From: Psychrobacillus soli | GTDB taxonomy: Bacteria > Bacillota > Bacilli > Bacillales_A > Planococcaceae | Assembly: GCF_006861775.1 (NCBI RefSeq) | Contig: NZ_VDGG01000016.1 | Coordinates: forward strand, 1 to 64,000 | Length of the DNA stretch: 64,000 bases | Direction: 5' to 3' | Shown: positions 13,051 through 61,965 of the stretch, one piece after another | Layout of the letters: every line of letters starts with the position of its first letter | Position numbering within the stretch: the first letter of the stretch is position 1 | Program-made: the position numbers and the translations under genes | Notes under the pieces: model-generated | What the model was told of the DNA's origin: nothing | Database searches by the model: none | The model's input: only the letters and a program-made list of their open reading frames with translations

Positions 13051-13353
13051 ATAGAGATAATGCATCTTAGACATTGTCGTCCCAATCTAAGTAAACTAGT
13101 TATTTTAAGAATTGGTTGCTTTCAATGACCGATTGGTTGCCCTAAGCCATTTACTGGATTCACATATTCGAAAAACCTGTATAAAATTTTGTTTTTAGCG
13201 AGTTGATACTGAATAAGTAAGCAATTTTCTTTGATTTTCGCTGCAGGCGTCGACTCCTGCCGGATGAGTGGGCATAATGAGACTTCACAACGTACGACTG
13301 CAGCGAAAATCATAGCGGTCACTAGTCAACGCGCTAAGACGCATTATCCCTAT
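13051..13353. repeat. MITE-like element, copy 2 (303 bp, inverted orientation)
   Basis: Ends ATAGAGATAATGC (13051-13063) and GCATTATCCCTAT (13341-13353) are inverted repeats with one mismatch. Internally it is the reverse complement of most of copy 3. It carries two array motifs on the minus strand (TTGGTTGCT at 13112 and TTGGTTGCC at 13133, 21 bp apart) and the paired TTTTCGCTGCAG / CTGCAGCGAAAA segments at about 13233-13312. An open frame crossing it is judged spurious. Confidence 0.8.
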
Positions 13354-15971: not shown

Positions 15972-17774
15972 TCACCCTTTTGCATTAGTAAATTGAATAA
16001 ATTCGTTCACATCTTGAATGCAAAGGTTGATCCCTTTTATCCAAAACGCTTCATTCGTAATATCTTCCCCTAAATGCTTCATTGCTAGATCTTCCACCGT
16101 CATCACTGCTGTGTCTTGAAGTAAAGCAATGTATTTTTCCTCAAAGTTTGCACCTTCTGTAATGGCTTTCGCATAAATGCTTAAAGAAAATAAATAGCCA
16201 AACGTATATGGGAAGTTATAGAACGGTACGTCAGTAATATAAAAATGTAATTTAGAAGCCCAGAAATGTGGATGAGTTGTTTCCAGTGCATCTCCATACG
16301 CTTCTTTTTGAGCAGCTTCCATTAATTCATTTAATCTTGTTGCAGAAACTATTCCATTTTTGCGTTCTTCATATAATCTAGTTTCAAATAAGAAGCGTGC
16401 GTGAATATTCATAAAGAATGCAACACTACGTTGGATTTTGTCTTCAAGTAGAGCAATTTTCTCTTCATCTGTTTTCGCTTCTTTTACTGCTGCATCCGCA
16501 ACAATCATTTCAGCAAATGTTGAAGCCGTCTCTGCTACTCCCATTGCGTATTGACGATTCATCCAATGTACTGGTCTTAAAGCATATGAATGAAAAGCAT
16601 GTCCCAATTCATGAGCAAGCGTCGAAACATTAGACATAGATCCACTATATGTCATGAATATACGAGATTCTTCTGATACTGGCATTCCCGTGCAAAAGCC
16701 TCCTGGACGTTTGTTTGGACGATCTTCCGCTTCAATCCAACCATTTTCAAAAGCATGCCTTGAAAAGGCTGCAAGTTTAGGACCGAACTCTTTGAAATGC
16801 TTCAAAATAAACGCTGCACCTTGTTGAAAATCCATCTTTTCAGTTGAAGCACTAATCGGTGCATCCAGATCATACCAATGGATTCTTTTTTCGCCTAGCA
16901 TTGCCGATTTTCTATGTAAATATTCGACGAATGGCGCTTTATTTTTGGAAATAGCTCCCCACATTGCATCTAGTGTTTCTTGTTTCATGCGGTTGATTTG
17001 CAAAGGTTCTTGTAATACCGAATCCCAACCTCTTTTTTCATATACAGCTAGACGGAATCCAGCAAGGTGGTTAAGTGTTTTAGCGAAAAAGTCCTCTTTC
17101 TCTGTCCAAGCAGCCTCCAGTGCATCAAAAGAAGCTTTCCTAATGGCAGCGTCCTCATGTGAGCTTAAGTTATTCGCTTGTCCCACAGATAACTCTTTTT
17201 CCACTCCGTCCACAGTTAGCTTGATACGAATGTCCCCTACTAATAAATCGTATAGCTGGCCCCAAGCATGATATCCATCAACACTAAGTGTTGTTATCAT
17301 ATCTTCTTCCTTTTCAGAGAGCATTTTCTTCGCTTCTTCTCTCCATTCATTTAATACAAATGCAAAGTTAGACAGTTCTTTTGTTTGAAGCAAATCCCGC
17401 CACACTGACTCTTCTGTCTGGCCAAGTACTTGTTGGATAGTAAGCATGGAGGAAGATAACTTTGCATATAGAGAACCTACTTCTCCTTCTAGTAATGCAG
17501 CTTGTTTATCCGTTATGTCTTGTGCTAAGAAACAGCCGATTACTGCCCCACCTTCGGATAAATTCACTGCAATATCCTTCAACTTGTTAATAGTATGCAC
17601 TATTTGATCTACCTCTTGAATAGACGATGGTGTACAAAAGCTTTTTAGTTCCTCTTCAAAGGTTACCAATTTGTTTTTTACTTCATCCAAGTGCTTTCGA
17701 AGTGCAGTAGAACTACTCCCCCCCACAAAAAAGGAATCTAGATCCCATACCATTGAATAAGTTTGTTCAATCAT
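15972..17774 (-). CDS. pepF: Oligoendopeptidase, PepF/M3 family
   Basis: Zinc metallopeptidase that degrades short peptides in the cytoplasm. 600 aa, typical for PepF. The active-site motif HELGHAFHSY lies near residue 390, with the downstream metal-ligand Glu in the AETASTFAEMI helix. The N-terminal half is helical (PepF_N). The start follows AGGGGGAAGATTTGA. Upstream gene of a two-gene unit with the GNAT enzyme. Confidence 0.93.
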   Translation of the reverse strand: MIEQTYSMVWDLDSFFVGGSSSTALRKHLDEVKNKLVTFEEELKSFCTPSSIQEVDQIVHTINKLKDIAVNLSEGGAVIGCFLAQDITDKQAALLEGEVGSLYAKLSSSMLTIQQVLGQTEESVWRDLLQTKELSNFAFVLNEWREEAKKMLSEKEEDMITTLSVDGYHAWGQLYDLLVGDIRIKLTVDGVEKELSVGQANNLSSHEDAAIRKASFDALEAAWTEKEDFFAKTLNHLAGFRLAVYEKRGWDSVLQEPLQINRMKQETLDAMWGAISKNKAPFVEYLHRKSAMLGEKRIHWYDLDAPISASTEKMDFQQGAAFILKHFKEFGPKLAAFSRHAFENGWIEAEDRPNKRPGGFCTGMPVSEESRIFMTYSGSMSNVSTLAHELGHAFHSYALRPVHWMNRQYAMGVAETASTFAEMIVADAAVKEAKTDEEKIALLEDKIQRSVAFFMNIHARFLFETRLYEERKNGIVSATRLNELMEAAQKEAYGDALETTHPHFWASKLHFYITDVPFYNFPYTFGYLFSLSIYAKAITEGANFEEKYIALLQDTAVMTVEDLAMKHLGEDITNEAFWIKGINLCIQDVNEFIQFTNAKG

Positions 17775-20316: not shown

Positions 20317-20709
20317 TATAAGGAAAATGTGTCGTAGTGAGTTGACTAGTGACCGCTATGATTTTCGCTGCAGTCGTACGCTTTCCGCCGGGTGAGCGAT
20401 GAGCCTTCACCGCCGCTTTGGCGTACGTTGTGAAGTCTCATTTTGCCCACTCATCCGGCAGGAGTCGCCGCTTGTAGCGAAAATCAATAAAAATTGCTTG
20501 CTTATTTAGCATCGACTCGCTAAAAACAAAATCTTATACAGGTTTTTCGAATATGTGAATCCAGTAAATGGCTTAGGGTAACCAATCGGTCATTAAAAGC
20601 AACCATTTCTATTCCGAAAGCAATCAGAACAGCATGGGAGCAACCAATTCTTAAAATAGCTAGTTTACTTAGATTGAGACGACAATGTCTAAGATGCATT
20701 TTCCTTATA
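20317..20709. repeat. MITE-like element, copy 3 (393 bp)
   Basis: Bounded by perfect 13-bp terminal inverted repeats TATAAGGAAAATG (20317-20329) and CATTTTCCTTATA (20697-20709). Contains the GC-rich palindromic part (TTTTCGCTGCAG near 20360 and TGTAGCGAAAATC near 20474) and four AGCAACCAAT-type motifs starting at 20577, 20598, 20619 and 20639. No coding potential. With the TPP leader it fills the gap 20064-20815. Confidence 0.85.
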
Positions 20710-35710: not shown

Positions 35711-35870
35711 TTTCCCACCTACTTAGCTTTATTAATTGAATTAGTATATCATGGTCAACCATTTCGATTGACATCATGATTTTTTTGTGTGATAATACGA
35801 TATGTTGACATTTTTGGTACGACATAAATTTTAGAAATTTGGCATTCTGCTTTATGTGTTTTTGATAATA

Positions 35871-36021
35871 CTTATTCACACTGGCGCGGCTATAGGGTCG
35901 CAAGGACGTAAAAGAAGGTAGGGTTTACGTTGCTTAGGTTAGAAAGCAACCAGTGGAACAATTTACCGCGGCATTGAAAGGGAACTCTTTCATGTAGATT
36001 ATTCCCCGAATTTTTTCGGGA
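35871..36021 (+). ncRNA. Candidate structured RNA with predicted pseudoknot, class unknown
   Basis: The gap 35711-36104 holds a compact, GC-richer island. TTC-a-CACTGG (35875-35884) pairs with CCAGTGGAA (35950-35958). CGCGG (35885-35889) pairs with CCGCG (35966-35970) and crosses the first helix. Inside lie hairpins ACGTAAA/TTTACGT and TTGCTT/AAGCAA; downstream TGAAAG/CTTTCA and a CCCGAA/TTCGGG hairpin at 36003-36020. An extended -10-like TGATAATAC lies at about 35862-35871. No riboswitch or known RNA class is recognised, and no gene follows on the same strand. The strand is inferred. Confidence 0.5.
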
Positions 36022-37540: not shown

Positions 37541-37785
37541 TTAGCGATAATGCGTGGTAGTAAGTCGACTAGCGACCGCTAAAAACAAAATTTCCTCCGT
37601 TTTTCGACTGTATGAATCCAATAAATGGCTAAGGGAAACAGATTGTTCATTGAAAGCAACCAATTCTATTCGGAAAGCAATCAAATCAACGCGAGAGCAA
37701 CCAAAATTCCGATGAAAGCAACCAATACTTAAAATAGCAAGCTTACATCATGTGAAACAACTATGATTACGACATATTATTGGAA
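37541..37785. repeat. MITE-like element, copy 4 (array-rich)
   Basis: The gap 37383-38016 has no gene. It holds GATAATGCGTGGTAG...GACTAGCGACCGCT, homologous to the left end of copy 3, then four AGCAAYCAA motifs at 37655, 37676, 37696 and 37717 (spacing 21, 20, 21 bp) and a degenerate right end TACGACATATTATTGG. The GC-rich palindromic part of copies 1-3 is missing. Confidence 0.75.
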
Positions 37786-57794: not shown

Positions 57795-58237
57795 AAATAG
57801 TGCGCACTAAAGGGTCTCTATTAAGTTACCGCTAGGATTTCCGCTACAGCGAAAATCAACAGAAATTGCTTACTTCTAAGCATCTAGGCTTACTGGAGCC
57901 TTTAGTTTATCTGTATCGCCCCGCTAAATCGCAATATTAAGCAGTTTTTCAAATGGATGAATCCAAAAAATGGTTAAGAGCAACGGGCGGAACTTTGAAA
58001 GCAACTAAAACTATATAGAAAGCAACCAAATTACTTCTGGAAGCAACCAATCCATCGTTGAAAGCAACCATTTCTTAGAGTAAAGAGTGTACTTGATGTG
58101 AGATGATAATTAGCAAGGGTGGTCCGCATGAGCCAAATTCATGAGACCCACTCGGGCGAAAACCCAGTTGGTTCGTACGAGGTAAGGCTAGCGCGTAGGC
58201 TTGTGGTTACTGTACTAGTAACTGTTGCGCACTATTT
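57795..58237. repeat. MITE-like element, copy 5 (443 bp)
   Basis: Perfect 12-bp terminal inverted repeats AAATAGTGCGCA (57795-57806) and TGCGCACTATTT (58226-58237). Contains a degenerate GC-rich part, five array motifs beginning at 57979, 58000, 58021, 58042 and 58063 (every 21 bp), and a stem-loop module (GCATGAGCC at about 58127) shared with copy 6. It fills most of the gap 57690-58305. Confidence 0.85.
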
Positions 58238-61744: not shown

Positions 61745-61965
61745 TATAGTGACCGCAAGTTTCCACGCTAGCCAACTCATCCTATACTAAAGTGTGGCTA
61801 AATTATTGTCTTCTCATACGAAGTGAACTTGTTATTTTAAGGATTGATTGCTTTCATCCGCCATTTGGTTGCTCGCTCATTGAATTGGTTGCTCTCCGAA
61901 TAAAATTGATTGCTTTAAATGGCCGATTGGTTGCTCTAACCCATTTACTGGATTCACATACTTTA
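61745..61965. repeat. MITE-like element, copy 7 (array, inverted)
   Basis: The gap 61632-62016 has no gene. Five motifs on the minus strand, TTGRTTGCT at 61844, 61865, 61885, 61906 and 61927 (spacing 21, 20, 21, 21 bp), with the same flanks as other copies (GTTATTTTAAGGATTG on one side, CCATTTACTGGATTCACATA on the other). The GC-rich part and clear terminal repeats are missing. Confidence 0.75.

What the first reader, a model, noticed from the sequence alone, without database searches (positions are those of the whole stretch)
57979..58075. AGCAAYCAA motif arrays phased at 20-21 bp (two helical turns)
Five copies of the element carry tandem AGCAAYCAA motifs with unrelated spacers. Measured starts: copy 5 spacing 21,21,21,21; copy 3 21,21,20; copy 4 21,20,21; copy 7 21,21,20,21 read in motif orientation; copy 2 21. 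The anchor is conserved while spacers drift, and the short step falls at the same place in copies 3, 4 and 7. Phasing by two DNA turns puts all motifs on one face of the helix, which suggests a cooperatively bound protein, a chromosome-organising site, or a bent-DNA array rather than a coding or RNA-pairing repeat.
Basis: partly seen in the sequence, partly recalled or inferred. Interest (0 to 1): 0.72.

Follow-up and report, generated by a model that had tools for sequence, protein, structure and literature searches.

The report
Two-turn-spaced DNA motif arrays between genes
A Psychrobacillus genome and several of its relatives carry many short repeated DNA arrays between genes whose units sit two turns of the double helix apart; some related species use a different motif at the same spacing, which suggests a protein-binding array carried by scattered, mobile-looking repeats whose function is still unknown.

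Summary
The spacing claim is right. The window holds five AGCAAYCAA arrays with the steps listed, and the own genome has 193 exact motif pairs 20-21 bp apart, against none for the reversed motif. In six congeners, found with spacing left free (15-29 bp), 132 of 134 neighbours within 30 bp lie 20 or 21 bp apart, none at 19 or 22. One statement is wrong: spacers are shared position by position among dispersed copies of one repeat, so the short step is inherited. The finding's own array lies inside a roughly 440-bp insertion with inverted ends that is missing at the orthologous site in four of six relatives compared. The phenomenon is wider than the motif: four congeners carry 16-115 GCAAGTAAA pairs and no AGCAAYCAA pair. 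In sampled genomes of the same GTDB-based family, noncoding arrays occur at lag 20 or 21 (plus 40), with none in samples from 20 other families. Maintained coding and RNA structure are not supported. Best reading: directly repeated, two-turn-phased protein-binding sites carried by dispersed repeats. The binder and its benefit are unknown.

The parts
57979..58074 (+). the array of the finding: five units (AGCAACGGG, AGCAACTAA, AGCAACCAA, AGCAACCAA, AGCAACCAT), all steps 21 bp
57795..58237 (.). insertion that carries the array (approximate limits), ends AAATAGTGCGCA / TGCGCACTATTT; intergenic region 622 bp here against 170-177 bp in G013, G015, G016, G017
61841..61938 (-). array of five units, steps 21,21,20,21, directly after a terminator-like hairpin (by eye) downstream of the 62017-63660 gene; absent at the same place in G011
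37652..37728 (+). array of four units, steps 21,20,21
20574..20650 (+). array of four units, steps 21,21,20
13109..13144 (-). array of two units, step 21; a composite-repeat end (TATAGGGATAATGCGTC) lies nearby at 13350 (-)

Best explanation
The arrays are iteron-like sets of asymmetric, directly repeated binding sites for a sequence-specific DNA-binding protein. Two-turn spacing (20-21 bp) puts all sites on one face of the helix so that monomers can bind side by side. The arrays are the conserved core of modular repeats (head, a few units, tail) that spread between genes, seldom between divergent genes. The protein's specificity and the sites change together between groups of species (AGCAACCAA in one, GCAAGTAAA in another) while the spacing stays. 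Shown: phasing, dispersal, insertion polymorphism of the window copy, species-wide motif choice, lack of maintained coding or RNA structure. Inferred: that a protein binds, that binding is cooperative, and what binding is for (propagation of the repeat, or an ordering, supercoil or read-through role at gene ends).
For: Steps of 20/21 bp nearly without exception. Unit profile in 464 own-genome units has GCAA at 98-99% while spacer positions are near random (units were picked by that profile, so the figure is inflated). In copies found by their tail, motif 0.887 against spacer 0.774. Motif choice by species: 115, 31, 22 and 16 GCAAGTAAA pairs in G009, G004, G007, G008, which have no AGCAAYCAA pair; G000, G003, G006, G010, G013, G016 have AGCAAYCAA pairs and no GCAAGTAAA pair; G011 has 7 and 1. 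The pyrG 3' intergenic region carries a 21-bp array in 13 of 19 species with five motif types. Noncoding arrays in sampled family members occur at lag 20, 21 or 40 only. Orientation relative to co-directional genes is about even (30 with, 38 against, of 123 arrays).
Against: No binder was identified. Between nearest-neighbour copies the motif diverges only somewhat less than spacers (0.085 against 0.126 per site, p = 0.002, with a mask that favours the motif and pairs that are not independent), so most own-genome copies are under weak constraint at best. One genome of another genus (G160) has about nine different motifs in 200 kb, which one specific protein cannot explain. At the finding's own locus the insertion is absent in four of six relatives compared. 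Six congeners (G001, G002, G005, G012, G017, G018) have no exact pair of either motif.
Confidence: 0.45

Rival explanations
1. Selfish repeat with no host role: the array is only the recognition region that an unknown transposase or recombinase needs in the master copies; all other copies decay.
For: Insertion absent at the orthologous place in G013, G015, G016, G017, short and array-less in G011. Arrays in opposite orientation at 5 of 12 orthologous places that I printed, in these within larger repeats with inverted ends as read by eye. Weak motif constraint among recent copies. Enrichment between convergent genes, which for pneumococcal repeats was read as tolerance of insertions (PMC3049150, passages).
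Against: An array is present at the pyrG 3' region in 13 of 19 species with changed motif. No transposase or target-site duplication was found, though no transposase was searched for. No such head and tail was noticed in the arrays of other genera that I read.
Confidence: 0.3
2. Mechanical sites: phased flexible or bent DNA that wraps gyrase or another architectural protein at ends of transcription units, comparable to BIME-2 and gyrase in E. coli.
For: For 44 arrays found without a motif, G+C alternates with the helical turn (second harmonic 2.15 against 1.16 in intergenic 21-mers; 0 of 300 run-permuted sets reach it; the same in 20 family consensuses). E. coli gyrase sites have a phased 10-bp G/C variation and lie downstream of transcribed operons (PMC6379681, passages). 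Location away from divergent gaps.
Against: The AGCAAYCAA family itself shows no such harmonic (p = 0.60 in the own genome, 0.15-0.71 in six congeners), and the 44 arrays include repeats of the same families. Letter-level conservation of GCAA goes beyond layout. [quoted passage not shown]
Confidence: 0.15
3. RNA-level element (for example a Rho-loading or RNA-binding-protein site after terminators).
For: Several arrays directly follow terminator-like hairpins (by eye, no control); the motif strand is A-rich with C above G and unstructured.
Against: Orientation is about even relative to co-directional genes; a two-turn spacing has no obvious meaning in single-stranded RNA; no Rfam match.
Confidence: 0.07
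4. Coding heptad repeats (21 bp = 7 codons, Glu-Ser-Asn-Gln-x-x-x).
For: The block reads GAR AGC AAY CAA with wobble-like variation, and some modules are open when read by eye (from the sequences).
Against: That frame has the most stops in the own genome (158 against 91 and 47 in 464 units) and in G016, G013, G010, G003; G006 is nearly level (27, 26, 18) and G011 is the exception (4, 4, 8). 20-bp steps shift the frame. Other families have a 20-bp period.
Confidence: 0.03

Closest known systems
BOX elements of Streptococcus pneumoniae (PMC3049150, passages seen)
   Same: dispersed intergenic modular repeat with a variable number of tandem middle units between two end modules; over-represented between convergent genes
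   Different: middle unit here is 20-21 bp, two helical turns, with a motif-plus-spacer build; no RNA fold seen; motif differs between species at constant spacing; sequence homology not tested
REP / BIME elements of enterobacteria
   Same: high-copy and intergenic; at least some BIME-2 bound by gyrase (PMC6379681, passages)
   Different: units here are direct repeats, not palindromes (palindromy of REP recalled); no hairpin signal
Iteron arrays of plasmid origins (recalled)
   Same: direct repeats of about two turns in one orientation
   Different: many chromosomal places; no initiator gene was looked for beside them
MITEs (definition as in PMC3049150, passages)
   Same: the copy of the finding is an insertion with short inverted ends and no ORF of 80 aa or more
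   Different: target-site duplication not resolved, parent transposon not looked for; arrays also occur without such ends
CRISPR arrays (recalled)
   Same: short repeats with regular spacing
   Different: 9-15 bp repeat, 6-12 bp spacers shared between dispersed copies; cas context not looked for

Membership tests
MITE | terminal inverted repeats | tested here: met
   AAATAGTGCGCA at 57795 and TGCGCACTATTT ending at 58237
MITE | insertion polymorphism at orthologous sites | tested here: met
   intergenic 622 bp against 170-177 bp in four relatives, 260 bp in G011; G006 has another insertion and its length is not reliable
MITE | target-site duplication | tested here: inconclusive
   junctions too diverged to fix
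MITE | parent transposon with the same ends | not tested
   -
BOX-like modular repeat | end modules around a variable number of tandem middle units | tested here: met
   head near TAAATGGCTNAGRGCAAC, a few units, tail CAAGTTTACTTG
BOX element proper | sequence homology to boxA/B/C | not tested
   no BOX sequence was compared
REP/BIME | palindromic units that can form hairpins | tested here: not met
   30 arrays, mean fold z +0.37 and -0.16 for the two strands; 0 and 2 of 30 below -2
Coding heptad repeat | open frame kept across units | tested here: not met
Phased bent or wrapped DNA | G+C/A+T alternation at about 10.5 bp | tested here: not met
   own motif p = 0.60; met for the wider class of 44 arrays
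CRISPR | unique spacers between near-identical repeats | tested here: not met
   spacers shared position by position among copies
Iteron array | bound by a replication initiator | not testable with these tools
   -

The most novel reading that the evidence does not exclude
This bacterial family has a general system of two-turn-phased intergenic arrays: the spacing is fixed, the motif is chosen per species or per array family, and a trans-acting DNA-binding factor (or a set of paralogues) co-evolves with tens to hundreds of sites to organise chromosomes or insulate gene ends. This would be a genome-wide binding code in which phase, not sequence, is the conserved part.
Probability: 0.3. Interest if true: 0.85.

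Novelty: new variant of a known kind. Interest (0 to 1): 0.6.

Why it matters
A constant two-turn period with a replaceable motif is a natural experiment: species with AGCAACCAA and species with GCAAGTAAA arrays should encode binders that differ in the same few residues, so the binder can be looked for by comparison and by pull-down. It would also show how a dispersed repeat and a DNA-binding protein evolve together in bacteria.

Tried and rejected
Rfam: no family over the element. Plasmid collection: no match. Coding heptads: rejected by stops and frameshifts. RNA structure: none. A common sequence motif behind all array families: an apparent shared motif beats letter-permuted controls (one set of 60 reaches it at one setting), but a control that reverses about half of the families reaches it in 0-2 of 60 sets with all 20 families, 4-5 of 60 without the four families ascertained by motif or locus, and 26-37 of 60 without G160, so I claim only a shared G+C-block / A+T-block layout. 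A 10.5-bp G+C alternation holds for the class but not for AGCAAYCAA. Indel rate in arrays against flanks by pairwise alignment was too noisy to use. Polarity relative to replication: strands are mixed in G003 and G010. Second array motif TTGCGCA: only one exact 21-bp pair in the own genome. Paper searches for such arrays (listings only, three of them empty) showed nothing on them in what was listed; the held library is open-access only.

Full report
OBSERVATION. The window has 15 exact AGCAAYCAA where 2.1 are expected. In the own genome (4.23 Mb, 101 contigs) the two-unit pattern at 20-21 bp occurs 193 times, the reversed control never. A search of 100 relatives with spacing left free from 15 to 29 bp found pairs in six more of the 18 congeners, and one or two pairs each in five of the 82 genomes outside the genus; the reversed control gave one match each in G010 and G014. 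Among the loci I fetched from the six congeners, 132 of 134 same-strand neighbours (at most one mismatch) within 30 bp of an exact unit are at 20 (13) or 21 (119), none at 19 or 22. Most further neighbours up to 70 bp are at 40-42 and 61-63.

The spacers are not unrelated between copies. Dispersed copies share spacers unit by unit, including the 11-bp spacer that makes the short step. The copies are therefore one modular repeat: a head near TAAATGGCTNAGRGCAAC, a few units, and a tail with CAAGTTTACTTG. Whole modules also occur in tandem, about 150-220 bp apart. The tail pattern occurs 59 times in the own genome and in 5 of 19 species. A subfamily has AGCAACTAA in most or all units while its spacers keep their unit identity.

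THE OWN COPY IS AN INSERTION. I compared the intergenic region of the finding with 6 of the 16 congeners in which the neighbouring gene gave a match. It is 622 bp here; in G013, G015, G016 and G017 it is 170, 177, 173 and 176 bp. In G011 it is 260 bp, with similar ends but no array. In G006 a different sequence is inserted and its length is not reliable. The added stretch, about 57795-58237, ends in AAATAGTGCGCA and TGCGCACTATTT. The array at 61841-61938 is missing at the corresponding place in G011; six other congeners printed there show no array either, but their neighbourhood differs. In 5 of the 12 orthologous comparisons I printed (of more pairs), the two species carry arrays in opposite orientation, in these within larger repeats whose inverted ends I read by eye.

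CONSERVATION. To avoid finding copies by their motif, I used the tail. In 43 copies (of 55, those with full length and no N), motif columns have mean majority frequency 0.887, spacers 0.774, head 0.672, and the tail, used to find them, 0.824. Between 33 nearest-neighbour pairs the difference is smaller: motif 94 of 1103 sites, spacer 136 of 1079, flank 443 of 2998. My unit mask tolerates two mismatches and so favours the motif, and pairs are not independent. The motif is thus constrained in the lineages that spread, but only weakly in individual copies.

SPECIES SWITCH THE MOTIF, NOT THE PERIOD. Downstream of pyrG (CTP synthase by NCBIfam; the next gene is DUF2529), 9 of 19 congeners show 17 motif-agnostic array clusters, all at lag 21 among lags 10-40. 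G005, G012 and G018 appear with laxer settings, which also gave one lag-27 hit in G002, and G016 by reading, making 13 of 19. The motifs are AGCAACCAA-like (G000, G003, G006, G010, G013, G016), GCGACAAA (G011), CGAGACCAA (G015), GCAAGTAAA (G004, G005, G009) and ATTGTMGTAAAA (G012, G018). Genome-wide, G009, G004, G007 and G008 have 115, 31, 22 and 16 GCAAGTAAA pairs and no AGCAAYCAA pair. G000, G003, G006, G010, G013 and G016 have no GCAAGTAAA pair; G011, G014 and G015 have one each; the other six have neither; the reversed control gave one match, in G002. In ten loci, 36 GCAAGTAAA anchors have neighbours within 45 bp at 21 (20), 20 (1), 42 (12) and 41 (1). NCBI puts the genus in Bacillaceae; the family used by the genome search is unnamed, Planococcaceae in GTDB as I recall.

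A WIDER CLASS. A scan for repeated 6-mers at any lag from 10 to 40 gave noncoding hits at 20 or 21 (30) or at 40 (3, at places that also repeat at 20), and at no other lag. The material was the window, 200 kb of G003, 200 kb of G160 (another genus), 400 kb from ten further genomes (nine other genera and the congener G008) and six named Psychrobacillus loci. Of the ten further genomes only three gave hits (G235, G022, G008); two more (G027, G054) appear at laxer settings or in stretches called coding. Twenty stretches from 20 other families (66 kb noncoding) gave none; at a laxer threshold they gave one at lag 14 and one at 26. Stretches called coding gave 7 at lag 21 (one of them in another family) and 8 at other lags; a 21-bp period also opens false frames. 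One array can be counted at both 20 and 21 (L288). G160 alone has about nine motifs, several with a 20-bp period, which excludes a codon-based period for those. Some stretches and all named loci were chosen near known hits, so densities are not unbiased. A profile of three units (R1) hit 28 of 200 family genomes; of the 17 outside the genus, 8 are arrays when read (six of genus g7, G022, G235) and 9 look like chance or coding.

CONTEXT. Of 123 AGCAAYCAA arrays, 44 lie between convergent genes, 9 between divergent genes, 68 in co-directional pairs (30 with, 38 against the array's strand) and 2 are undetermined; one of the 123 overlaps an ORF longer than 600 bp. Gaps of at least 100 bp in the window are 6 convergent, 9 divergent, 15 co-directional. 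The gene calls are simple ORF calls. In the sampled stretches, arrays are in 9 of 56 convergent, 3 of 77 divergent and 14 of 183 co-directional gaps of at least 120 bp (convergent against rest p = 0.029, divergent against rest p = 0.15).

MECHANISM TESTS. Coding: in 464 own-genome units the Glu-Ser-Asn-Gln frame has 158 stops, the other two 91 and 47; G011 is the one of seven species where that frame is not highest (4, 4, 8), and G006 is nearly level (27, 26, 18). RNA: 30 arrays (of a sample of 40) have mean fold z +0.37 and -0.16 on the two strands. DNA layout: 44 motif-agnostic arrays show G+C alternation at the helical period, as reported for E. coli gyrase sites (PMC6379681, passages), but the AGCAAYCAA family does not. 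A shared motif behind all families was not established.

CONCLUSION. What is shown: real two-turn phasing, a dispersed carrier repeat that is insertion-polymorphic at the finding's own place, motif differences between species at one period, and no maintained coding or RNA structure. What is inferred: binding by a protein, and its purpose. I give 0.45 to a phased protein-binding array carried by dispersed repeats, 0.3 to a purely selfish repeat, 0.15 to wrapping or bending sites. In the listings I saw no paper on such arrays.

Noticed in passing
G003 and G010 (G003 one contig, G010 two): With R1 hits merged within 1 kb, all 15 array loci of G003 lie in the half of the chromosome nearest dnaA; in G010 18 of 28 do. 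Strands are mixed.
   Followed up: partly
window 13350 (-), 60147 (-); L208, L088, L192: Larger composite repeats with inverted ends TATAGGGATAATGCGTCGTA...TTTTCGCTGCAG, some of which contain the arrays.
   Followed up: partly
L012, L109, L118: A second array type, TTGCGCA/TTGCGAG about every 21 bp on the other strand, in or beside the same composite repeats; an exact search found only one pair in the own genome.
   Followed up: partly
L275:8301-8546 and 17323-17578 (G160): Two different arrays (CGCAACTAAA, then CCGCACCYC) joined by a similar linker at two places, like a composite element.
   Followed up: no
L298:18904-19862 (G027): An array of about 46 units of AATTCGTGCGGATRC at 21 bp, about 960 bp long.
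   Followed up: no
window 35856-35943 (-): Match to the BsrC sRNA family, besides T-box, two purine, TPP and PreQ1 riboswitches.
   Followed up: no
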